This document shows positions 50,886 to 61,968 of a stretch of 64,000 bases of DNA, piece by piece (the stretch's first letter is position 1; the number at the start of each line of letters is the position of its first letter). The position numbers were made by a program, and so were the translations under genes. The stretch spans positions 2,418,001 to 2,482,000 of the forward strand of contig NZ_CP015596.1 of NCBI RefSeq assembly GCF_001644575.1, in the 5' to 3' direction. The stretch is from Mycobacterium adipatum (lineage in GTDB: Bacteria; Actinomycetota; Actinomycetes; Mycobacteriales; Mycobacteriaceae). A model generated the notes under the pieces. The model was not told the DNA's origin, ran no database searches, and worked only from the letters and a program-made list of their open reading frames with translations.

Positions 50886-51476
50886 GTAGCGGTAGTACAG
50901 CGCGCGCCGGATCACGGCGCCGGGCAGCACGTCGCCGGCCACGCGTCGAATCTCGTCGAGAGATTCACGCGGGTCGGCGACGGCCACGCCGATCTCCGGG
51001 ACCTCGGAATGCCGCCACGACCCCACGCGCACCGCAGGCAGGCATATCGCCGACCAGATCCAGTCGCCGACAGTCTTGTTCGCGCTGAGACCGACGACGG
51101 CGATGGTGCCGCCCGGATTCAGCATGTCGCGCGCCCGGACCAGGGCTTCGCGGGTGTCCATGTGATGCAGGCTCGCCACGAACGTGATCAGGTCGAATCG
51201 CTGCGATCCGGGATCGAAGGCCTCGAAGGCGGATTGACGGACCCGAACCCCGGGCAGAGCCCTGACCCGCTCGCCGGCCCGCCGCGCGGACAACGGGTCG
51301 GGATCGATCGCGGTGACGGTGTGTGCAACCGGTGCCAGCCGTTGTGCCAGCAACCCGTCGCCGCAACCGACGTCGAGCACGTCACCCCCACGACATGCCG
51401 CGATCGTGAGCAGCCACCGATGGTAGGCCGTGTTGTGGTTCCAGTAGTCACGGCGATTCGAGTTGGCAGCCCCCAT
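50862..51476 (-). CDS. Class I SAM-dependent methyltransferase
   Basis: A 204-residue methyltransferase from ATG at 51476. The SAM-binding motif I is VLDVGCGDGLLAQRL, motif post-I is VTAIDPDP and motif IV FDLITFVASLHHM, as in UbiE/Methyltransf_11 proteins. Its first 29 bp overlap the end of the upstream ABC transporter ATPase gene on the same strand, so it is translated with that operon. Its last 24 bp overlap the convergent Gly/Ala-rich gene. Substrate unknown; the transporter link suggests a small peptide or amine. Confidence 0.88.
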   Translation of the reverse strand: MGAANSNRRDYWNHNTAYHRWLLTIAACRGGDVLDVGCGDGLLAQRLAPVAHTVTAIDPDPLSARRAGERVRALPGVRVRQSAFEAFDPGSQRFDLITFVASLHHMDTREALVRARDMLNPGGTIAVVGLSANKTVGDWIWSAICLPAVRVGSWRHSEVPEIGVAVADPRESLDEIRRVAGDVLPGAVIRRALYYRYLLRCTLG

Positions 51477-53127
51477 GACCGTCCACTGTGCCAGTTCCGG
51501 ACAACGAGGTGCGGCTAGCGTCGGTAGAATCTGCGAGGCGGTCCGGCGGCACCGCCGCCAGCAGCGCGCGGGTGTATTTCTGTTCTGGCGCGGCGAAAAG
51601 TTTAGCGGCGGAGCGGTATTCGACACATTCGCCGGCGCGCAGCACCAGCACGTCGTGGCTCACCCGTTGGATCACCGCCAGGTCGTGCCCGATGAACAGG
51701 TAGGTCAGTTCGAGATCGCGCTGCAGCTCCAGCAGCAGATCCAGCACTCTCGCCTGCACCGACACATCCAGGGAAGCGGTGGCCTCATCGAGGATCAACA
51801 GTTCCGGCGCCACGGCGAGCGCCCGCGCAATACTGACCCGCTGACGTTGTCCGCCGGACAGCTCGTGCGGGTAGCGGGTGGCGAACGCCGCGGACAGACC
51901 GACCGAATCGAGGAGTTCGGCGACCCGGGCGACCCGCTGTGCGCGGTCGCCCACCAACCGGTGCACGACGAGCGGCTCCGCGATCGACGCGCCCACCGGC
52001 ATCCGCGGGTTCAGGGTGGCAAACGGATCCTGCATCACCAGGCTGATGCGTTGCCGGACGGTCTTACGCTGTGCGCCAGGTACATGCAGCACGTCGACGC
52101 CGTCCAACACGGCACTACCCGATTGGGGTGTGACCAGACCGGTCAGTGCCGAGGCGACCGTAGACTTGCCGGAGCCGGATTCGCCGACCAGACCCAGGGT
52201 GGTGCCCCGGCGGATCTGGAACGACAGATCCTTGACCGCGTGCACCACCGAGCGTCCCGCCGGCGTGCGCACCGGAAAGCGGACGTCGAGCCCGTCGACC
52301 TGCAACAGCACCGGAGCGTCGGCGGCCGGCGCGGGAGGTCCGTCACCGCCCAATACCGGACGCGCACTGAGCAGTTCGCGAGTGTAGGGTGCGCTCGGAC
52401 GAACAAAGATGTCGTCGACATTGTCCTGCTCGATCACCTCGCCGTCCCGCAACACCGTCACCGAATCGGCAACCTCGCCGATGACCCCGAGGTCATGACT
52501 GATCCACATCACCGCGGTGCCGAAATCGCGCTGGAGGTCCCGGATCAGTTCGATGATCTGCGCCTGCGTGGTGACATCCAGCGCGGTGGTGGGTTCGTCG
52601 GCGACCAGCAGTTCGGGATCGCAGGCCAAGGCGATGGCGATCATCACCCGCTGGCGTTGTCCGCCGGAGAGCTGATGCGGATAGCTGCGCAGCCGGTGCG
52701 GCGGGTCGGGAAGACCGACGGCCTCCAGCAGCTCCAATGCCCGCGAGCGGGCCTGCCGACGCGTCTGATTCTTGTGTGTCTCCAGCGATTCGGTGATCTG
52801 GCGTTCGACTGTCAGCAACGGATTCAGCGACGTTCCGGGGTCTTGGAAAACGAATCCGATCCGTCCGCCGTGCACCCGGCGCAACGCGCGGGCCGATGCC
52901 CCCACGAGTTCCTGGTCGCCGGCGAGAACGCTGGAGCCACGCACCTGCGCGCCGGGGGCGTCGAGCAGGCCGGTCGCGGCGAGCACCGTCATCGACTTGC
53001 CGGAACCGGACTCACCGACGATGCCGAGGGTCTGCTCCGGTTCGACACGGACCGACACATCGCGCACGATCCGCCGCCCTCCGATGCGCACAGCCAGGTC
53101 GCGGACGGCCAGCACCGGCGGGCTCAT
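51448..53127 (-). CDS. Peptide/nickel-type ABC transporter, fused double ATPase
   Basis: A 559-residue protein with two ABC ATPase domains in tandem (DppD-DppF fusion). Domain 1: GESGSGKSM (about residue 36), [27 protein letters not shown]. Domain 2: GESGSGKST (about 314), [28 protein letters not shown]. Oligopeptide-binding C-terminal extensions (PYTRELL and KYTRALL) follow each domain, as usual. ATG at 53127 overlaps the upstream permease stop (ATGA). It powers import by the two permeases and binding protein encoded upstream. Confidence 0.93.
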
Positions 53128-54005
53128 CGTCGTCTCCGGGCTTCGATCATGGTGCGCTGCTTGGGATCCAGCACATCGCGCAGACTGTCACCCAGCAGAT
53201 TGCAGGCCAGCACGATGACGAAGATGGCCAGCCCGGGGAACACCGCCATCCACCACGCCAGCGTGACGAAACCCTGAGAGTCGAAGATCATCCGCCCCAG
53301 CGAGGGTGCGGGCGGCTGCAATCCCAGACCGAGGAAGGACAGCGCAGCCTCGGACAAGATGGCGAACGCCAGCGATAGCGAGAGCTGAACGATGAGCGGG
53401 CCGGTGATGTTGGGCACGATGTGCCGGGCCAGGATGTACCCCGAGCCGGTGCCCATGGTGCGCGACATCGCGACATACGGCTCGACCCGTACCGAGAGGG
53501 TGCTCGCGCGGGCCACTCGGGCGAAGATCGGGATGTAGACGATGCCGATCGCCAGAATCGTGGTGGTGAGCCCCGGTCCGAGCACGGCGACGATGGACAG
53601 GGCGAGTAGCAACACCGGGAACGCGAACATGACGTCGACCATCCGCATCACCACGGTGTCCAGCCAGCCGCCGCGATAACCCGCCAGCACCCCCAGTGTC
53701 ACACCGAGGACCGCCGCGAACGTCACACTGATGACGGCCACCTTCATCGACGCCTGCACGGCGATCAGAACCCGTGACAGCACATCGCGGCCCAGTTCAT
53801 CGGCGCCCAGCCAGTGCGCTCCGCTCGGCGGGCGCAGAGCCTGCGGAACGTCCACGTCGTTGACACCGTACGGCGCGATCCACGTCGCGGTCAGCGCGAT
53901 CACGAGCACGGCGAGCAGCGTCAGGGCACTCAGCACGGTCACCGGATTTCCTGCCAACAGTCGCCAGGCCCTGGTGCGCTCGTCGACGATCCCGTGTTCG
54001 GTCAT
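53124..54005 (-). CDS. Peptide/nickel-type ABC transporter permease (DppC-like)
   Basis: A 293-residue permease from ATG at 54005 with the DppC/OppC pattern: N-terminal helix, HWLGADELGRDVLSRVLIAVQASMKVA, and the EAA loop YVAMSRTMGTGSGYILARHIVPNITGPLIV that docks on the ATPase. About six membrane helices. It overlaps the DppB-like gene by 4 bp and the ATPase gene by 4 bp. Confidence 0.92.
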   Translation of the reverse strand: MTEHGIVDERTRAWRLLAGNPVTVLSALTLLAVLVIALTATWIAPYGVNDVDVPQALRPPSGAHWLGADELGRDVLSRVLIAVQASMKVAVISVTFAAVLGVTLGVLAGYRGGWLDTVVMRMVDVMFAFPVLLLALSIVAVLGPGLTTTILAIGIVYIPIFARVARASTLSVRVEPYVAMSRTMGTGSGYILARHIVPNITGPLIVQLSLSLAFAILSEAALSFLGLGLQPPAPSLGRMIFDSQGFVTLAWWMAVFPGLAIFVIVLACNLLGDSLRDVLDPKQRTMIEARRRR

Positions 54006-54952
54006 GACAGCCGGATCCTCGGATCGACGACCGCGTACAGCAGATCCACCAGCAGATTGACCGCAAGGAACAGCACCGCCATCAGCAGGACCGCGCCCTG
54101 GATCACCGGATAGTCCCGCGCGGCCACCGAGTTGAACACCAGCCGGCCCAGACCGGGCCACGCGAACACCACTTCCACGACGATGACGCCGCTGAGGATG
54201 GTGGCCACCTGGATTCCGGTGATGGTGAGGATCGGGACGAGCGCGTTGCGCACGGTGTGGCGCATCGTCACCAATCGGGGTGGGAGCCCTTTGGAGCGTG
54301 CGGTGCGGACGTAGCCCATCGCGGACACCTCCAACACCGCCGATCGGACATAGCGGGTCATGATGGCCGCCGCGACCAGGCCCACGGTCAACCCGGGCAG
54401 CATGACGTGGCGCAGCCAGCCGCCCGGATCCTCCAGCAGCGGTCGATACCCCGAGGTGGGCAGCCAGCCCAGCACCGTGGAGAACAACGAGATGAGCAGG
54501 ATGCCCAGCCAGAAGTCGGGCACCGAGACGCCGAATTGGCTGGTGATACGGACGATCGCGTCGCTGGCCCGGCCTTCGCGCAGCGCGGAGTAGACGCCGG
54601 CCGGCAGCGCGATCGCGAGCGCCAGCACAATGCCGACGAACGCCAGGGACACCGTCGCGGGCAGCCGGTCCAGGAGGAGTTCGGTGACCGGATCTCCGTT
54701 GCGAAAGCTGACTCCCAGATTTCCGGTTGCGGCGTGCCCGAGGTAGCCGAAGAACTGGCTGATCAGCGGTTCGTCGAGCCCGCTTGCTTCGCGTAGCGCT
54801 TCGTAAGCCGCTGGTGTGTAACGGGTTCCGAGTGCCAGCCGCACCGGGTCGCCGGGGACCAGGTGGACCAGTGCGAACACCACGATGAGCACGCCCACCA
54901 GCACCACCAGTGAGTACGCCAGCCGCCGGGCCAGGAACGCCAGTACCGTCAC
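54002..54952 (-). CDS. Peptide/nickel-type ABC transporter permease (DppB-like)
   Basis: A 316-residue permease from GTG at 54952 in a GTGA overlap with the binding-protein gene. N-terminal LARRLAYSLVVLVGVLIVVFALVHLVPGDP is the DppB/OppB signature; the EAA loop is YVRTARSKGLPPRLVTMRHTVRNALVPILT; FAWPGLGRLVFNSVAARDYPVIQG is the conserved late loop. It pairs with the DppC-like permease to form the channel. Confidence 0.92.
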   Translation of the reverse strand: MTVLAFLARRLAYSLVVLVGVLIVVFALVHLVPGDPVRLALGTRYTPAAYEALREASGLDEPLISQFFGYLGHAATGNLGVSFRNGDPVTELLLDRLPATVSLAFVGIVLALAIALPAGVYSALREGRASDAIVRITSQFGVSVPDFWLGILLISLFSTVLGWLPTSGYRPLLEDPGGWLRHVMLPGLTVGLVAAAIMTRYVRSAVLEVSAMGYVRTARSKGLPPRLVTMRHTVRNALVPILTITGIQVATILSGVIVVEVVFAWPGLGRLVFNSVAARDYPVIQGAVLLMAVLFLAVNLLVDLLYAVVDPRIRLS

Positions 54953-56472
54953 GGGTTTGCACCGCCGGAGTCCAGGGCGGCGTCGCGGAACCGGATCGCC
55001 TTGTCACGGCGGGCCTGGTAGCCGGACAGCCCGGGTGTCCAGGCCTGGATGACCGCGGGGTTGTACAGGTACAGGTAGCTCACCTCGTCGGCGATCAGGG
55101 TGGCGGCCTGTGCGTAGTCCGCTTTGCGCGCTGCGACATCGGTCTCGGTGCGGCCGGCGTCGAGCAGCCTGTCCACCCGTGGATCGGAGAATTTCTGGGC
55201 GTTGCTGGTGCCGTCGGTGTGGTGCTGAGCGTAGTAGAAGTCATCGGGGTCGATGTTGCCCAGCCATCCCATCATCAGCATGTCGAACCGTCCGCTGTTC
55301 TGTTCGTCGAGCCAGGTCGCGAAGTCGACGGTGCGGATGTTCACGGTGATGCCAAGGGGCGCAAGGTTGTCGGCGATCACCTGGGCGGCAGTGACGGTCT
55401 GCGGGTACTCGGTGGTGACCAGCAGGTCCATGGACGACGGTGTCACGCCGGCCTCCTGCAGCAGCGCGCGGGCCTTGTCCAGGTCCCGGCGGTAACGGTC
55501 ATAGGGCACGAACCACGGGTTGCCCTCGGGGATCGCCAGTTGATTCGCTTGCGCGGTACCGTAACTGGTGGCCTGCAGGATCGACAGTCGGTCGATGGCG
55601 TAGGCCACCGCTCGGCGGACGCGCACGTCGTTCCACGGTGGGCGGGCCAGGTTGAGCGCCAGGTACCAGTAGTCGTTACTCGGCGTCTGCGCCAGGTGCA
55701 GCGAATCGTCGTTGCGCAACTGGTTCACCCGTTGGGGTGGCACCGCATCGGTCCAGTCCACCTCACCGGCCTGCAGAGCGGACAGAGCGGTGGATGGTTC
55801 GCTGATGAATCGGTAGGTCACGCCGGCGATGTTCGGGGCACCGTCCCAATATCGGGAGTTGGCGCGCAAGGTGATCGAGTCGCCGCGCTGGTGGGAGACG
55901 AAGGCGAACGGGCCGGTGCCGACCGGATGCGTGGCGATCCGACCTTCCTCGACATTGCGACGCTGCACGATCGCCATTCCCTTGAACCCGCCGAGGTTGG
56001 TCAGCAGATTCGGCGTCGGGCGTGCCAGCGAGATACGCACCGTGTGGTCGTCGACGGCGCTGATGTCGGCCAGCGCGCTGAGTTTGTCGACGTTGGTGAG
56101 TTCTTCGTCGATGATGCGGCGGTAGGAGTAGACGACGTCGTCGGCGGTGAACGGACTGCCGTCGTGAAAGGTCACGTCCGGCCGCAGCCGGAACGTCCAG
56201 ACCAGCTGGTCCGGTGAGATCTCCCAGGACTGCGCGAGCGCCGGACGCATGATCAGATCGGCGTCGGGTTCGACCAGCGTGTCGAACACGTTCTCCAGGA
56301 CTTCGAACGAGAAATACGCGCTGGTCTTCTGCGGGTCCAACTGGTCGGGTTCTCCGGCGATCGCGGCAACCAGGTTGCCCGCGTCCTGGCCGAGGTCGAC
56401 CCGCTGACCGGTGGAGCATCCCGCGGACGCGACCACGACGACGGCGGCGATGATGGCCGCGACCAGTCGCAT
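54949..56472 (-). CDS. ABC transporter substrate-binding lipoprotein (family 5, DppA/OppA-like)
   Basis: A 507-residue family 5 solute-binding protein. ATG at 56472 with GGAAAG about 10 nt upstream; a GTG three codons earlier is too close to the ribosome site. Lipobox ASAGC at Cys19. The SBP_bac_5 motif is seen in LAQSWEISPDQLVWTFRLRPDVTFHDGSPFTADDVVYSYRRI, and YWYLALNLARPPWNDVRVRRAVAYAIDR is the second conserved block. It would bind the peptide, nickel complex or other substrate on the outer face. First gene of the leftward transporter operon. Confidence 0.92.
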   Translation of the reverse strand: MRLVAAIIAAVVVVASAGCSTGQRVDLGQDAGNLVAAIAGEPDQLDPQKTSAYFSFEVLENVFDTLVEPDADLIMRPALAQSWEISPDQLVWTFRLRPDVTFHDGSPFTADDVVYSYRRIIDEELTNVDKLSALADISAVDDHTVRISLARPTPNLLTNLGGFKGMAIVQRRNVEEGRIATHPVGTGPFAFVSHQRGDSITLRANSRYWDGAPNIAGVTYRFISEPSTALSALQAGEVDWTDAVPPQRVNQLRNDDSLHLAQTPSNDYWYLALNLARPPWNDVRVRRAVAYAIDRLSILQATSYGTAQANQLAIPEGNPWFVPYDRYRRDLDKARALLQEAGVTPSSMDLLVTTEYPQTVTAAQVIADNLAPLGITVNIRTVDFATWLDEQNSGRFDMLMMGWLGNIDPDDFYYAQHHTDGTSNAQKFSDPRVDRLLDAGRTETDVAARKADYAQAATLIADEVSYLYLYNPAVIQAWTPGLSGYQARRDKAIRFRDAALDSGGANP

Positions 56473-56592
56473 ATCCGTCACTTTCCGTGCGCGCCGGCCC
56501 CGAGTGGGCGTCGGCCTACAGCTGAAAATGCGGCTACCCGCGTCGCACACTCTTTACACCTGTGGCCGCACTCGGCGGACCGGCGGACGAAT

Positions 56593-56886
56593 TCAGACGT
56601 CGCTGGTGGTGTACCGCGTCTTCACCGGCGGGGCGGTCAGGAGCGCGGGCACCGCGGTGAGCTTGCCCTCGCCGGCCCGGAACGCGCGGTAGGCCTCGTC
56701 GTGTTCGACGGACTCCCACAGTTCGTAGATCAGCCAGTGCCCCTCATCGGTCTCGTCGACGAGCACATCGGTTCCGAGATTGCCGGGGAAGGCCCGGGTG
56801 TCGACCAGGGCGCGGCGGAAGATGTCGCGCGCTTCGGCGACGCTATCGGGCTTGATCTTGAGTTCGAGGACAACGGTGACCGGCAT
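56593..56886 (-). CDS. Antibiotic biosynthesis monooxygenase (ABM) domain protein
   Basis: A 97-residue ferredoxin-fold protein from ATG at 56886. VVLELKIKPDSVAEARDIFRRAL and DEGHWLIYELWESVEHDEAYRAF match the ABM family of small dimeric monooxygenase-like proteins (cofactor-free quinol oxidases, heme-degrading or unknown). It lies just downstream of the phytochrome-phosphatase on the same strand (23-bp gap), so it may be co-transcribed with it. Role unknown. Confidence 0.85.
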   Translation of the reverse strand: MPVTVVLELKIKPDSVAEARDIFRRALVDTRAFPGNLGTDVLVDETDEGHWLIYELWESVEHDEAYRAFRAGEGKLTAVPALLTAPPVKTRYTTSDV

Positions 56887-56909
56887 GTCCGACAACATAC
56901 CGCCGGGGA

Positions 56910-59162
56910 TCAGAGGCGTTGCAGCGTGATGATGGTGACGTCGTCATCGGTCTCCGAGGATGCCAGCGCCTTCGAGATCGTCGACGCGCTGCGGTCGCCG
57001 GCCCGGCCGATCGCGTCGGCGAGTCGGTCCAACCCCGCGTCGATGGTGGAGTCCCGTCGTTCCACCAGTCCGTCGGAGTACATGACGAGCCCTTGTCCGC
57101 GGTCCACGGTGAACGCGCTCGGTGCGTAGCTCACACCACGCACCCCGATGGGAGGTGACAGTTGCACCGGTGCCTGCTCGATCACCGGCCCGGTGCGATA
57201 GGGCGGCAGGTGTCCCGCCGAGGCTGCCTCGACCTGCCCGGATTCCAGATCGACCCGCACGAGGATCACGGTGGCGAAGGTGCGCGGCATCAGGTGCAAG
57301 CTGAACGCGTTCAGTTGTGCCAGTGCCTCAGCCGGCGTGGCCCCGGCAAACAACTGCGAGCGCAACGCGTTACGAAGTTGGGCCATCGCCCCGGCGGCAC
57401 TGAGCCCGTGTCCGGCGACATCGCCCAGCAGTGCGATGAGGCGACCGTCGGGCAGCTGGAACGCGTCATACCAGTCGCCGCCCACCCGGCCCCCGGCGGC
57501 CGGCCGGTAGTCGGCGGACAGCTCCCAGCCCTCGATGGTCGGAATCGACGCGGGCAGCAGGCTGCGCTGCAGCATCTCGGCGACGCGGAACGCTCCTCGG
57601 GTGCGCCGGTACAACTCCTCGACGAGGTGGCCGCGCAGCGCCTCGGCGGTCTCGAGTTGGATGGATGTCCAGGGTTCACAACACTTCTCGACGACCTCGC
57701 GCCAGCGCTCGAAGGATCGGCGGGGGCTGAGCCGCACTCCGTCTCCCTCGCGCACGGCGATGGCCTTGTTGTGCGGGTCCCCGCCCCAGTCCACTGCGCG
57801 CAACGCTTCCTCGCGAAACCAGATCACGTATTGTTCGTCGGGCAGATTCAGCGCCAGTGCGCCCGCGGCGTCGTGCAGATCCAGTTCGGGGAATTCGTCG
57901 GACAGCCGTTCGGTAGAGGTCATCTCCGCGCCGGAGTCCCGCGCCCAGGAAGCGACCGCGGCCACCACATCGGCCGGCGGGACCTCGCCCAGCACATGGT
58001 ATTCACCGCCGAGGCTGACCGCGACCCCGGCGGCGGGTAGCAGGTCCAGCAGGCTGGGGTAGCCCAGCAACGCCGACGCGACCGAATCGCTCTCGTTGAG
58101 TGTCGCGGCGGTCAGGTGGGCGAGCATCGACTGCGACGCCAGGCGCTCGCGCAGCTGATCTTCGTCAAATCGGTCGACCAGTCGCAAAGACAGTGTGGAA
58201 CCGAGGAATTCGGCTGCGGCCCGGACGCCGTAAGGGGGTAGATGCGGTCCGGCGTAGTGGTGGCAGGCGATCAGACCCCAGAGCCGGCCATGGCGCAGCA
58301 GTGAGATGGACATCGACGCGCGCACACCCATGTTCTGCAGGTACTCGATGTGGACCGGCGAGACGCTGCGCAGGGTGGCGTGCGTCAGGTCCAACGGCGT
58401 GCCGACGTCCGGGTCCACGGCGGGCACCAGTGGGGCCGGAACATAGTCGACATCGGAGATCAGACGCAGCCAGTTCTTCTCGTACATGGCCCGGGCCTGC
58501 GCGGGGATGTCACTGGCCGGATAGTGCAGGCCGAGAAAGGAATTGAGGTCCTCACGTTTGCATTCTGCGACGACTTCCCCGTTGTAGTCGCGGTCGTAGC
58601 GATACACCATCACCCGGTCGAATCCGGTCAGATCGCGCACCGCCCGGGCCGCCGTGTCGTACAGCTCGCCGATCGAGGTGGCCCGGTTGAGTTCCTCGAC
58701 GGAGTTGCGCACCGCCTGAAAGGTGTTCGGGAAGGAGAACGGCCGCTGCCCGTACGCGATTTCGAGCTCGACCAGCAGCACACCGCCCGGTTCTCGATGC
58801 AGCAGCGCGTCGAAGGGCCGCGCACGTCCGGCGACGGTGAGTTCCAGCTCCAGCGGATTGCGTTGCCGCAGATCGCCGAAAGTCTGTGCCGACTGTTGAA
58901 CGCGGTCGGCCTGCGCGGCGCCGATGAGTGCCGACAGGTGCCTGCCGAGGACCTCATCGACGGACACCCCGAGCAGATCGCCGACGTTCGCGCTGATCTG
59001 CCGGATCTCGAAATCACGTTCCCGAACCACCGCCAGCACCCCGCGCGGCTGGACGCTGCCCGGAATGTGGATCGGCTCACGGGCGCAGTTGTCGAGGTCG
59101 ATGGGCGTGCCCGCGGGCAGCAGATCGCCGTCGGCGTCGCCGTCGGTGGTGTGACGCGAAAT
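56910..59162 (-). CDS. Bacteriophytochrome-PP2C (RsbU/SpoIIE-type) phosphatase
   Basis: Sensor-effector fusion of about 750 residues. PAS: NCAREPIHIPGSVQPRG with chromophore Cys26 in the ATT-start numbering. GAF: YRYDRDYNGEVVAE, PASDIPAQAR, SPVHIEYLQNMGV and ACHH, the bilin pocket. PHY: tongue motif SPRRSFERW. PP2C output: GGDWYD, GDVAGHG, YSDGLVERR and a final DDVTIITLQR, with metal-binding Asp residues. This predicts a red/far-red photoreceptor that dephosphorylates a STAS partner. The first ATG/GTG/TTG in frame is GTG at 59039, after the Cys; the frame is open back to TAG at 59274-59276. ATT at 59162, 7 nt after GGGGG, is the best start giving a full sensor. Confidence 0.85.
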   Translation of the reverse strand: MSRHTTDGDADGDLLPAGTPIDLDNCAREPIHIPGSVQPRGVLAVVRERDFEIRQISANVGDLLGVSVDEVLGRHLSALIGAAQADRVQQSAQTFGDLRQRNPLELELTVAGRARPFDALLHREPGGVLLVELEIAYGQRPFSFPNTFQAVRNSVEELNRATSIGELYDTAARAVRDLTGFDRVMVYRYDRDYNGEVVAECKREDLNSFLGLHYPASDIPAQARAMYEKNWLRLISDVDYVPAPLVPAVDPDVGTPLDLTHATLRSVSPVHIEYLQNMGVRASMSISLLRHGRLWGLIACHHYAGPHLPPYGVRAAAEFLGSTLSLRLVDRFDEDQLRERLASQSMLAHLTAATLNESDSVASALLGYPSLLDLLPAAGVAVSLGGEYHVLGEVPPADVVAAVASWARDSGAEMTSTERLSDEFPELDLHDAAGALALNLPDEQYVIWFREEALRAVDWGGDPHNKAIAVREGDGVRLSPRRSFERWREVVEKCCEPWTSIQLETAEALRGHLVEELYRRTRGAFRVAEMLQRSLLPASIPTIEGWELSADYRPAAGGRVGGDWYDAFQLPDGRLIALLGDVAGHGLSAAGAMAQLRNALRSQLFAGATPAEALAQLNAFSLHLMPRTFATVILVRVDLESGQVEAASAGHLPPYRTGPVIEQAPVQLSPPIGVRGVSYAPSAFTVDRGQGLVMYSDGLVERRDSTIDAGLDRLADAIGRAGDRSASTISKALASSETDDDVTIITLQRL

Positions 59163-59343
59163 AGCTCGACCCCCAGGTTGAAGTGCGGTCTTCCCGCCTC
59201 GAGAGTGCCAGGTCAGTGCGCGTCCGGTTACATCGACTCCGGGCTTGCCGTAAGCTCGGGCACAGTCAGCGTTCTAACTTGCCCGGTTGAGCAACAGCCC
59301 GTGAGAGATTGCGCCCGAATCAACGCATCCGCGAGGTATTGAG

Positions 59344-59721
59344 ATGCCCAACCCATTCGTTTCTGGTCCGTCATCGCTGGTGTGCACCGAAACATGGCGT
59401 GCCACCACCGTGGTGATCAGCTGCTCCGGCGTGGTCGACATGCTCACCGCGCCCCACATGGGCCAGCTCATCGCCAGCGCGCTGGACAAACGGCCGGCCG
59501 CCGTCGTGATCGACCTGACCGACACCACCATGTTCGCCTCGTGCGGGATGTCCCTGCTGGTGGAGACGCAGGAGAAGCTGCCCGACGAGGCCGCCCTGAT
59601 CGTCGTCGCCGACGGACCGGTCACCCGACGCCCCCTTGAGCTGGTGGGGCTCTCGGCGTTCCTGACCATCTGCTCGACGGTGGATGAGGCGCTGCAGGAG
59701 GCGCAACCCGCCGAGGGCTGA
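59344..59721 (+). CDS. STAS-domain anti-anti-sigma factor
   Basis: A 125-residue STAS protein from ATG at 59344 behind GAGGT. The phosphorylation-site region reads DLTDTTMFASCGMSLLVETQ, with Ser66 where SpoIIAA/RsbV proteins are phosphorylated (DSSG region, here ASCG). In partner switching, the unphosphorylated form binds an RsbW/SpoIIAB anti-sigma kinase and frees a sigma factor. It is divergent from the phytochrome-PP2C across a 181-bp shared promoter region and is its probable substrate. No kinase or sigma gene is adjacent. Confidence 0.88.
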   Translation: MPNPFVSGPSSLVCTETWRATTVVISCSGVVDMLTAPHMGQLIASALDKRPAAVVIDLTDTTMFASCGMSLLVETQEKLPDEAALIVVADGPVTRRPLELVGLSAFLTICSTVDEALQEAQPAEG

Positions 59722-59754
59722 GACACCCGTGGGCGCTTCGTGCACCATGGGCCC

Positions 59755-60510
59755 ATGACCGTCGTATTCGTTCATGGGAACCCGGAAACCAGTGCCATCT
59801 GGGGGCCGCTGATACGCGCCCTGGACCGCGACGACATCGTCACGCTGTCGCCACCCGGGTTCGGCGCGCCATTGCCCGACGGATTCGACCCGAGCTACCT
59901 GGGCTACCGGGACTGGCTCGAAGACCAATTGGAACGCATCGATGCGCCGATCGACCTGGTCGGCCACGACTGGGGCGGCGGTCACGTGGTCAACGCCGTT
60001 ATGCACCGCCCCGAACTGGTCCGCAGCTGGGTCAGCGATATCGTCGGTGTCTTCGACCCGGACTATGTCTGGCATGACCTCGCCCAGATCTGGCAGACGC
60101 CCGACGCCGGCGAGCAGCATGTCGCGGCCATGATGGCCGGTCCCGTCGCCGAGCGCATCGCGAATGCTGTCGCGATGGGCATCGGACCCGATATCGCGCC
60201 GGCGTTGGTGGCGGCCCAGAACGAGGACATGGGCGCTGCGATCCTGCGGCTGTACCGCTCGGCCGCCCAGCCGGTGCTCGCCGAGGCGGGCGCCGCGTTG
60301 GAGAACGCCGCGGCGCGTCCCGGTCTGGCGATCCTGGCCACCGAGGACCATTTCGTCGGCTCGGAGCAGATCAGGCGGCGGGCCGCCGACCGGGCCGGGG
60401 CCCGCACCGAGGTGCTCCAGGGCCTCGGACACTGGTGGATGATCGAGGACCCGGCGCGCGGCGCGGACGTGCTGAGGCGGTTCTGGGCCACACTCGACGC
60501 TGCGGAATAG
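59755..60510 (+). CDS. Alpha/beta hydrolase, haloalkane dehalogenase/epoxide hydrolase-like
   Basis: A 251-residue alpha/beta hydrolase from ATG at 59755. HG motif VFVHGNPE near the N terminus; nucleophile elbow GHDWGG with Asp72 in place of Ser, as in haloalkane dehalogenases and epoxide hydrolases; acid in ATEDHF; catalytic His226 in GLGHWWMIEDP. The short cap domain (about 125-185) is consistent with a small substrate. Function beyond the class is unknown. A 33-bp gap separates it from the SDR gene. Confidence 0.85.
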   Translation: MTVVFVHGNPETSAIWGPLIRALDRDDIVTLSPPGFGAPLPDGFDPSYLGYRDWLEDQLERIDAPIDLVGHDWGGGHVVNAVMHRPELVRSWVSDIVGVFDPDYVWHDLAQIWQTPDAGEQHVAAMMAGPVAERIANAVAMGIGPDIAPALVAAQNEDMGAAILRLYRSAAQPVLAEAGAALENAAARPGLAILATEDHFVGSEQIRRRAADRAGARTEVLQGLGHWWMIEDPARGADVLRRFWATLDAAE

Positions 60511-60543: not shown

Positions 60544-61968
60544 GTGACCGCGATCGATCCGGAGAAGCTGCGCACCTGCCTGCAGGTGCTGTCCGAGGTC
60601 GAATCGTTGCACCCCGAGCACCCCGATGCGGTTGCTGTGCGACGTGCCACGGCCGGCATCTGGAAGTCGGTGCGCAAGGCGCGCCGGCACGCCAAACGCG
60701 ACGAGGTGGCCGCCGCCGACAAGGCCGTCATCGCCGCGACCGCCACCGGTGCACCCGGGCGTATCGACGACGAGACCGCCGGGCTGCCGCTGGTGTCGGC
60801 GACCACCGGCGCTTCCGCGGGGACGCTGCTGCGCTCGCGGGCCTGCTACATCTGCAAGCAGCACCACACCGTGGTCGACGCGTTCTACCACCAGCTGTGC
60901 CCGGAGTGCGCCGCGTTCAGCCACGCCAAGCGCGAAGCCCGCACCGACCTGACCGGCCGCACCGCCCTGCTGACCGGCGGTCGCGCCAAGATCGGCATGT
61001 ACATCGCGTTGCGGCTGCTGCGTGACGGTGCGCACACCACCATCACCACCCGCTTCCCGAACGACGCGGTGCGCCGATTCGCGGCCATGGAGGACAGCGC
61101 CGACTGGCTGCACCGGCTGCGCATCATCGGTATCGACTTGCGTGATCCCGCGCAGGTGGTGGCGCTCGCCGACACCGTGGCCGCCCGCGGCCCGCTGGAC
61201 ATCCTGATCAACAACGCCGCGCAGACGGTGCGTCGGGCACCCGGCTCGTACTCGGCGCTGGTCGAGGCCGAGCGCACCCCGCCGGCGGAGCTGTCCCGGG
61301 TGGACGTGGTCACCTTCGACCGGGTCAGCGACGCCCATCCCGCGGCGCTGGCCGGCAGCCTGGCCGAGCACCAGACCCCGCACGGGATCATGGAACTGGC
61401 CCTTACCGCCCGCAGCGCCTCGCCCGAACGGATCGCCGCCGGGACCGCCATCGATGCCGGCGGACTGCTGCCCGACACCGCGCCGGTCAACAGCTGGACC
61501 CAACGGGTGCACGAGGTGGATGCGATGGAGCTGCTGGAGGTGCAGCTGTGCAACCAGACCGCGCCGTTCATCCTGGTGAGCCGGCTGCGCCCGGCGATGG
61601 CCGCCTCCCCGGCGCGCCGCAAGTACGTGGTGAACGTATCGGCGATGGAGGGCCAGTTCGGCCGCCGCTACAAGGGCCCGGGTCACCCGCACACCAATAT
61701 GGCCAAGGCGGCGCTGAACATGCTCACCCGCACCAGCTCCGCGGAGATGCTGGAGCAGGACGGCATCCTGATGACCGCGGTGGACACCGGCTGGATCACC
61801 GACGAGCGTCCGCACCCGACCAAGCTGCGGCTGGCCGAGGAGGGCTTTCATGCGCCGCTGGACCTGGTCGACGGCGCCGCCCGCGTCTACGACCCGATCG
61901 TGCGCGGTGAGGCCGGCGAGGATCTGCACGGCTGCTTCCTGAAGGATTACCGGCCCAGCGACTGGTAG
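60544..61968 (+). CDS. SDR-fold protein with N-terminal zinc ribbon
   Basis: A 474-residue protein from GTG at 60544. Residues 1-95 are helical and charged; residues 100-125 hold CYICKQ...LCPECAAF, a CxxC/CxxC zinc ribbon; residues 140 onward form a Rossmann SDR with LLTGGRAKIGMYIAL, DLRDP and NNAAQTVR. Ser366 (NVSAMEG) and Lys388 (NMAKAAL) fit the catalytic set, but the residue four before the lysine is Thr384 rather than Tyr; Tyr376 is the nearest tyrosine. An inserted segment (about 240-330) is also unusual. The active site is probably altered. Function unknown. Confidence 0.8.
   Translation: MTAIDPEKLRTCLQVLSEVESLHPEHPDAVAVRRATAGIWKSVRKARRHAKRDEVAAADKAVIAATATGAPGRIDDETAGLPLVSATTGASAGTLLRSRACYICKQHHTVVDAFYHQLCPECAAFSHAKREARTDLTGRTALLTGGRAKIGMYIALRLLRDGAHTTITTRFPNDAVRRFAAMEDSADWLHRLRIIGIDLRDPAQVVALADTVAARGPLDILINNAAQTVRRAPGSYSALVEAERTPPAELSRVDVVTFDRVSDAHPAALAGSLAEHQTPHGIMELALTARSASPERIAAGTAIDAGGLLPDTAPVNSWTQRVHEVDAMELLEVQLCNQTAPFILVSRLRPAMAASPARRKYVVNVSAMEGQFGRRYKGPGHPHTNMAKAALNMLTRTSSAEMLEQDGILMTAVDTGWITDERPHPTKLRLAEEGFHAPLDLVDGAARVYDPIVRGEAGEDLHGCFLKDYRPSDW

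What the first reader, a model, noticed from the sequence alone, without database searches (positions are those of the whole stretch)
56910..59721. Red-light partner-switching module: bacteriophytochrome-PP2C divergent from a STAS protein
The leftward gene joins a complete PAS-GAF-PHY photosensory core (bilin Cys motif, PASDIP, ACHH, PHY tongue SPRRSF) directly to a SpoIIE/RsbU-type PP2C phosphatase with GGDWYD and DDVT motifs. The adjacent divergent gene is a STAS anti-anti-sigma factor with Ser66 at the phosphorylation site. Together they predict light-controlled release of a sigma factor without a histidine kinase output. Photobiology in mycobacteria is little described, and no RsbW kinase or sigma gene is adjacent, so the partner may be a general stress sigma such as SigF elsewhere (inference).
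Basis: partly seen in the sequence, partly recalled or inferred. Interest (0 to 1): 0.8.

Follow-up and report, generated by a model that had tools for sequence, protein, structure and literature searches.

The report
Red-light phosphatase switch in mycobacteria
A mycobacterium carries an intact-looking red-light sensor fused to a phosphatase, next to the kind of protein such phosphatases act on; relatives place the same sensor beside genes of stress-sigma-factor switches, and its translation appears to start at an unusual AUU codon, so light probably feeds into the stress response, though nothing has been tested at the bench.

Summary
Window 56910-59162 (-) encodes a 750-aa PAS-GAF-PHY bacteriophytochrome fused to a SpoIIE/RsbU-type PP2C; 59344-59721 (+) is a divergent STAS protein with Ser66 at the phosphorylation position. 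Usual start rules miss the bilin Cys; the likely start is ATT (59160-59162) behind a strong Shine-Dalgarno, kept as ATT/ATC/ATA/ATG in 16 of 16 clade loci. Full-length orthologs occur in 79 of 396 genus genomes (80 loci), with bilin and PP2C key residues invariant. Partner-switching genes lie within about 1.5 kb in 34 of 80: this STAS (16), another STAS plus RsbW-type kinase (9), REC-PP2C (5), PP2C-RsbW fusion (4). The own genome has rsfB-rsbW2 and sigF loci elsewhere; the STAS is closest to that RsfB (46%). Best model: light sets PP2C activity on STAS/RsfB and so SigF. Against: no canonical heme oxygenase here (2 of 16 in the clade), only MhuD; light response, substrate and sigma factor are untested. 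The fusion architecture is already known; the mycobacterial wiring and start codon look new.

The parts
56910..59162 (-). Bacteriophytochrome-PP2C: PAS-GAF-PHY core joined to SpoIIE/RsbU-type PP2C; 750 aa from the proposed ATT start
59160..59162 (-). Proposed non-canonical ATT start codon
59169..59174 (-). Shine-Dalgarno-like GGGGGT, 6 bases before the ATT
59085..59087 (-). Codon of the bilin-attachment Cys26
59344..59721 (+). STAS anti-anti-sigma protein (125 aa), divergent, Ser66 in the phospho-acceptor position (FASCGM)
59163..59343 (.). Shared intergenic region of the divergent pair (181 bases)
56593..56898 (-). ABM-fold (PF03992) small protein, 11 bases after the phytochrome stop, probably same operon (inference); role unknown

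Best explanation
A light-input arm of a mycobacterial partner-switching circuit. The phytochrome core binds a bilin at Cys26 and photoconverts between red and far-red states; the change passes down the PHY helix into the fused PP2C domain and alters its dephosphorylation of the divergent STAS protein at Ser66, and perhaps of its paralog RsfB. Unphosphorylated STAS then binds an RsbW-type protein and frees a sigma factor, most likely SigF. An RsbW2-type kinase encoded elsewhere re-phosphorylates it. Translation of the sensor starts at AUU behind a strong Shine-Dalgarno, which should keep its level low and sensitive to IF3. Shown by sequence: architecture, residues, conservation, synteny, start-codon conservation. 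Inferred: chromophore, light response, substrate, kinase, sigma factor, IF3 control. The sign of the light effect is unknown.
For: Domains and motifs. Full-length orthologs in 79 of 396 genus genomes, 80 loci. Partner-switch genes within about 1.5 kb in 34 of 80 loci, in several places on the tree (families confirmed on representatives); this STAS in 16 of 16 clade loci and 0 of the other 64. In L015 and L016 the phytochrome is followed by REC-PP2C, HK and REC (66-69%, 62%, 88-90% identical to the own-genome copies) that in the own genome adjoin rsfB-rsbW2, much as reported for M. smegmatis, where RsbW2 phosphorylates RsfB at Ser63 and RsfB controls SigF (PMC7693655, abstract and passages). 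The STAS is nearest to the own RsfB-type protein, 46%, whose matches include the solved RsfB 8ih8 (second of 6). A SigB/F/G-family gene above cut-off lies at C1:4908570-4909241 with an RsbW-like match upstream of it. Start: aligned codon ATT 10, ATC 4, ATA 1, ATG 1 of 16; Shine-Dalgarno duplex -9.6 to -13.1 kcal/mol in 16 of 16; infC has ATC at the homologous place in 30 of 30 loci examined.
Against: No PF01126 heme oxygenase in this genome, and in only 2 of 16 clade genomes. No kinase or sigma gene beside the window pair; the link to SigF is by paralogy and by relatives, and the RsbW adjoining the phytochrome in 9 loci is only 40-43% identical to own-genome RsbW proteins. In L015 and L016 the RsbW-type gene beyond REC is only 34-36% identical to RsbW2, and no RsfB was found there. 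25 of 80 loci show neither a partner-switch nor a heme-oxygenase gene in the flanks searched; 21 show heme oxygenase instead. No SigF-type promoter was found between the window genes with the pattern used. The STAS scores below NCBIfam's anti-sigma-antagonist cut-off (45 against 53.45) and has Ala before the Ser where Bacillus proteins have Asp (Bacillus motif recalled), though the own RsfB-type protein has the same Ala. Five of 16 clade loci have a usual start codon further upstream in frame, with weak Shine-Dalgarno (-2.2 to -5.8), and L052 has one besides ATG at the site. The full-length AlphaFold model is poor (pLDDT 69.2, pTM 0.36).
Confidence: 0.6

Rival explanations
1. The phytochrome-PP2C acts mainly on RsfB or another of the eleven STAS proteins, and the adjacent STAS is a sink or a branch to an output other than SigF (a non-sigma partner switch).
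For: Eleven STAS domains and three strong RsbW-type domains in the genome; other lineages keep the phytochrome with a different STAS and kinase; 64 of 80 orthologous loci lack this STAS.
Against: The STAS is the divergent neighbour in 16 of 16 members of the clade, which argues for a functional pair.
Confidence: 0.25
2. In this clade the protein is no longer a light sensor: without heme oxygenase it works as apo-protein or with another ligand, and the PP2C is regulated otherwise.
For: PF01126 is missing in 14 of 16 clade genomes against 21 of 63 other phytochrome genomes (Fisher p 0.00013, relatedness and assembly gaps not corrected).
Against: Bilin Cys, the Asp of PASDIP, pocket His residues and tongue motifs are invariant in 80 of 80 loci, the clade included. 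MhuD is present and reported to make some biliverdin (passage); two DUF2470 proteins exist (role not tested).
Confidence: 0.12
3. Translation does not start at ATT; the protein starts at the GTG 59039 called by the usual rules, or at a CTG, and the conserved ATH codon is incidental.
For: The usual rules give GTG; a 709-aa protein with that start is in the database. Chance ATH with equally strong Shine-Dalgarno occurs in frame in 5 of 64 non-clade loci. The first dozen codons after the ATT show no clear third-position bias.
Against: That GTG is not kept throughout the clade (GTT in L055, GTA in L057) and would remove the Cys; codons -11 to +15 around the Cys differ mainly at third positions (0.063, 0.031, 0.355). 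10 of 16 loci have a stop before any usual upstream start, and 8 of these also have none between ATH and Cys.
Confidence: 0.05

Closest known systems
Phytochrome-SpoIIE/PPM fusions in a phytochrome survey (PMC9587094, passages)
   Same: The same sensor-to-phosphatase architecture is named there among phytochrome effectors.
   Different: Seen were a results sentence and a figure legend naming the domain; the passages hold no mycobacterial system, partner genes or start codon.
M. smegmatis SigF partner switch RsfB-RsbW2-MSMEG_6131 (PMC7693655, abstract and passages)
   Same: STAS plus RsbW2 kinase plus PP2C logic; similar gene order in the own genome; a REC-PP2C of this type adjoins the phytochrome in relatives.
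   Different: There the PP2C has a receiver domain; the term 'light' occurs 0 times in the main text.
RsbU and sensor-PP2C linker mechanism (PMC12143880, passages)
   Same: N-terminal sensor coupled through a helical linker to a PP2C that acts on STAS proteins.
   Different: PAS, receiver, GAF and HAMP inputs are listed; 'phytochrome' occurs 0 times in the main text.
Conserved AUU/AUA starts with extended Shine-Dalgarno in S. aureus (PMC13009471, passages)
   Same: Conserved non-canonical start with strong Shine-Dalgarno; infC also non-canonical; about 10% of AUG output in poor medium there.
   Different: Other genes, other phylum; measured there, only inferred here.

Membership tests
Bacteriophytochrome photosensory core | PAS-GAF-PHY with N-terminal bilin Cys, DIP motif, pocket His, PRxSF tongue | tested here: met
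Bacteriophytochrome BphP (NCBIfam NF041576 equivalog) | Score above curated cut-off (1040 bits) | tested here: not met
   345.1 bits; only residues 55-559 of the 787-codon frame match
Bacteriophytochrome photosensory core | Bilin binding and red/far-red photoconversion | not testable with these tools
   needs spectroscopy
RsbU/SpoIIE-type PP2C | SpoIIE domain with metal-binding Asp motifs | tested here: met
RsbU/SpoIIE-type PP2C | Dephosphorylates a STAS protein | not testable with these tools
   gene context only
STAS anti-anti-sigma (RsfB/RsbV type) | STAS domain above Pfam cut-off with phospho-acceptor Ser | tested here: met
   43 bits against 22.6; Ser in 16 of 16
STAS anti-anti-sigma (RsfB/RsbV type) | Above NCBIfam TIGR00377 cut-off | tested here: not met
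   45 bits against 53.45
Complete partner switch in one locus | Adjacent RsbW kinase and sigma gene | tested here: not met
   none among the families searched beside the window pair; a kinase adjoins the ortholog in 9 of 80 loci
IsdG/MhuD heme-degrading ABM protein (for 56593-56898) | Trp and His at the heme-site positions of MhuD | tested here: not met
   Phe for Trp and no His in 14 of 14 in a MAFFT alignment with the own MhuD ortholog; Trp66 position recalled, His75 also in PMC8801480
Non-canonical (AUU/AUC/AUA) start | Conserved codon with Shine-Dalgarno | tested here: met
   16 of 16 loci, 15 non-canonical and one ATG; no usual start at all for a Cys-bearing product in 8 of 16
Non-canonical (AUU/AUC/AUA) start | Initiation at that codon, IF3 sensitivity | not testable with these tools
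   needs N-terminal mass spectrometry or reporters

The most novel reading that the evidence does not exclude
A clade of mycobacteria runs a light-to-SigF switch without a canonical heme oxygenase: the phytochrome takes its bilin from MhuD (trace biliverdin, or mycobilin as a new phytochrome chromophore), and its AUU start puts sensor synthesis under the same IF3 discrimination as infC, holding the receptor at a level matched to scarce chromophore.
Probability: 0.15. Interest if true: 0.85.

Novelty: new variant of a known kind. Interest (0 to 1): 0.62.

Why it matters
It would give mycobacteria a defined red-light input into the SigF stress response, whose M. smegmatis regulon includes carotenoid synthesis (PMC7693655, passages), in about a fifth of the sampled genus genomes (79 of 396). 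It offers a natural phytochrome-to-serine-phosphatase pair for mechanism and optogenetics, raises a testable question about bilin supply without canonical heme oxygenase (missing in 35 of 79 phytochrome genomes), and shows a conserved non-AUG start on a sensor gene.

Tried and rejected

SigF promoter: the pattern G[GT]TT-N14-18-GGG[TCA][AT], within about 330 bases upstream of the Cys codon on both strands, gave no hit for the window and scattered hits in seven other loci. The published consensus GGWWT-N16-17-GGGTAY was not scanned.

Full-length structure: too poor to judge the sensor-phosphatase linker; no fold search was run with it.

Literature on a mycobacterial phytochrome or phytochrome partner switch: 2 papers; 1; 0; 1; 1; 31 papers, 15 listed. 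No title or abstract start listed describes a mycobacterial phytochrome; passages of PMC9587094 and PMC10979010 were read, the latter on photocobilins with predicted STAS/SpoIIE interaction. Only open-licence papers are held. Passages of PMC8256260 and PMC8131568 were also read.

Rows dropped: five genomes with partial, split or fragmentary orthologs (G260, G169, G015, G075, G102) are outside the 79/80 counts; the first four were set aside (2 of 4 have PF01126) and G102 fell in the no-phytochrome group. L129 (33% identity) is outgroup only. Of loci L005-L016, eleven repeat clade or genus loci and were not added to counts; L015 was used only for synteny. The control threshold of -9.5 kcal/mol was chosen after seeing the clade's values. 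Part of the printed output was cut; clade values were printed again.

Full report
WHAT IS THERE. The minus-strand frame ending at 56910 encodes PAS_2, GAF, PHY and SpoIIE domains. 112 solved-structure sequences match; most of the 60 shown are named phytochromes or photoreceptor histidine kinases, the best over residues 57-557 of the 787-codon frame. The STAS gene 59344-59721 (+) is divergent. An ABM-domain gene follows the phytochrome after 11 bases on the same strand.

START CODON. The ORF listing begins the frame at GTG 59039, downstream of the bilin Cys. Upstream the frame is open to a stop at 59274-59276 and holds DNCAREPIHIPG but no ATG, GTG or TTG. Orthologs share one place: an ATH codon, mostly ATT TCG CGT, behind GGGGGT or GGGGAGGT. 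Over the 16 clade loci the codon is ATT 10, ATC 4, ATA 1, ATG 1; its first two bases are invariant; Shine-Dalgarno duplex energies lie between -9.6 and -13.1 kcal/mol. In 10 of 16 a stop precedes any usual upstream start, and in 8 of 16 no usual start can give a Cys-bearing protein; 5 have a usual start further upstream with weak Shine-Dalgarno, and one has ATG at the site. Codons -11 to +15 around the Cys differ mostly at third positions (0.063, 0.031, 0.355), so they are translated; the first dozen codons after the start show no clear bias. Control: in the 64 other loci ATH with an equally strong Shine-Dalgarno occurs in frame in 5 (three of them the same place in sister loci), and in the other two frames in 5 and 3. 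Second control: infC has ATC behind a strong Shine-Dalgarno at the homologous place in 30 of 30 loci examined (40 genomes searched, 39 with a match); in 13 of the 30 no usual start lies upstream in frame within 60 codons, in 17, the own genome included, one does. A near-identical 750-aa form is in the protein database, so some pipeline has accepted this start. PMC13009471 (passages) describes conserved AUU/AUA starts with extended Shine-Dalgarno in S. aureus.

DISTRIBUTION AND CONSERVATION. Full-length orthologs: 80 loci in 79 of 396 genus genomes (five genomes with fragments not counted). Cys26, Asp218, His271, His301, His302, WGG, the P-R-S-F of the tongue and the PP2C Asp residues 563, 581, 697, 740 and 741 are each 80 of 80. 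The 16 STAS-bearing loci form one clade with SH-aLRT 100 (quick method, no bootstrap).

NEIGHBOURS. Within about 1.5 kb on each side (less for L107 and L128), of 80 loci: this STAS divergent in 16; a different STAS plus RsbW-type kinase downstream in 9; REC-PP2C in 5 (several only in part); PP2C-HATPase fusion in 4; heme oxygenase in 21, of which 16 divergent; none of these in 25 (L129 excluded). Pfam confirms representatives of the partner-switch types. In the longer loci L015 and L016 the REC-PP2C is followed by HK and REC like those of the own rsfB-rsbW2 locus, then by a different RsbW-type gene, 34-36% identical to RsbW2; RsfB itself was not found there. All neighbour labels need 13 changes on the tree against 46.8 in shuffles, so they follow lineages.

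CIRCUIT IN THE OWN GENOME. Four SpoIIE matches, eleven STAS, 22 HATPase_c_2 matches of which three exceed 60 bits, one PHY, seven SigB/F/G matches of which one is above cut-off with an RsbW-like match (30 bits or less, over its cut-off) just upstream on the same strand. L134 carries STAS - RsbW - REC - HK - REC-PP2C. This resembles rsfB-rsbW2 in M. smegmatis, where RsbW2 is the kinase of RsfB Ser63, RsbW1 holds SigF, and a REC-PP2C was said (data not shown there) to dephosphorylate RsfB (PMC7693655, passages). The window STAS is 46% identical to the L134 STAS, its best paralog among loci held; the next, L018, is 36%.

CHROMOPHORE. PF01126 is absent from the own genome. It is present in 126 of 396 genus genomes: 42 of 63 phytochrome genomes outside the clade, 2 of 16 within it, 80 of 313 without a counted ortholog, 2 of 4 set aside (not corrected for relatedness). 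So 35 of 79 phytochrome genomes lack it. The own genome has a clear MhuD ortholog. PMC8801480 (passages) reports mycobilins as main and biliverdin as minor MhuD product. Two DUF2470 proteins exist; that HugZ-type heme oxygenases carry this domain is recalled, and activity is untested.

MECHANISM. Sensor, effector, substrate-type partner and the downstream kinase and sigma types are all present. That light changes phosphatase activity, that this STAS is the substrate, and that SigF is the end point are inferences. The sign of the light effect cannot be told.

VERDICT. A real, conserved, probably functional module; a new variant of a known kind, with an unusual start codon and an open chromophore-supply question.

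Noticed in passing
L147 and L148-L176 (infC): infC has ATC behind a strong Shine-Dalgarno at the homologous start in 30 of 30 genus loci examined.
   Followed up: yes
window 59163-59343; L049-L064: The divergent intergenic region holds a conserved element CTGGCACTCTCGAG: exact in 8 of 16 loci, variants in 6, absent in L056 and L057 (read by eye). Possible promoter or operator.
   Followed up: partly
window 56593-56898: ABM-fold gene 11 bases after the phytochrome, in 14 of 16 clade loci, 69-95% identical to the window's; function unknown.
   Followed up: partly
L080 and 20 other loci: Heme oxygenase adjoins the phytochrome in 21 of 80 loci, in 16 of them divergent, in the place the STAS gene holds in the window clade.
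   Followed up: partly
L129 (G158): A distant phytochrome-PP2C (33% identical) in one genus genome, and other phytochrome matches at 32-41% identity.
   Followed up: no
window 60544-61965: SDR-family protein with about 130 residues before its Rossmann part, beyond the alpha/beta hydrolase 59740-60510 that follows the STAS gene.
   Followed up: no
window 51448-56550: Genes that read as a peptide-type ABC transporter (two ATPase halves in one protein, permeases, binding protein) beyond the phytochrome operon; judged from ORFs only.
   Followed up: no
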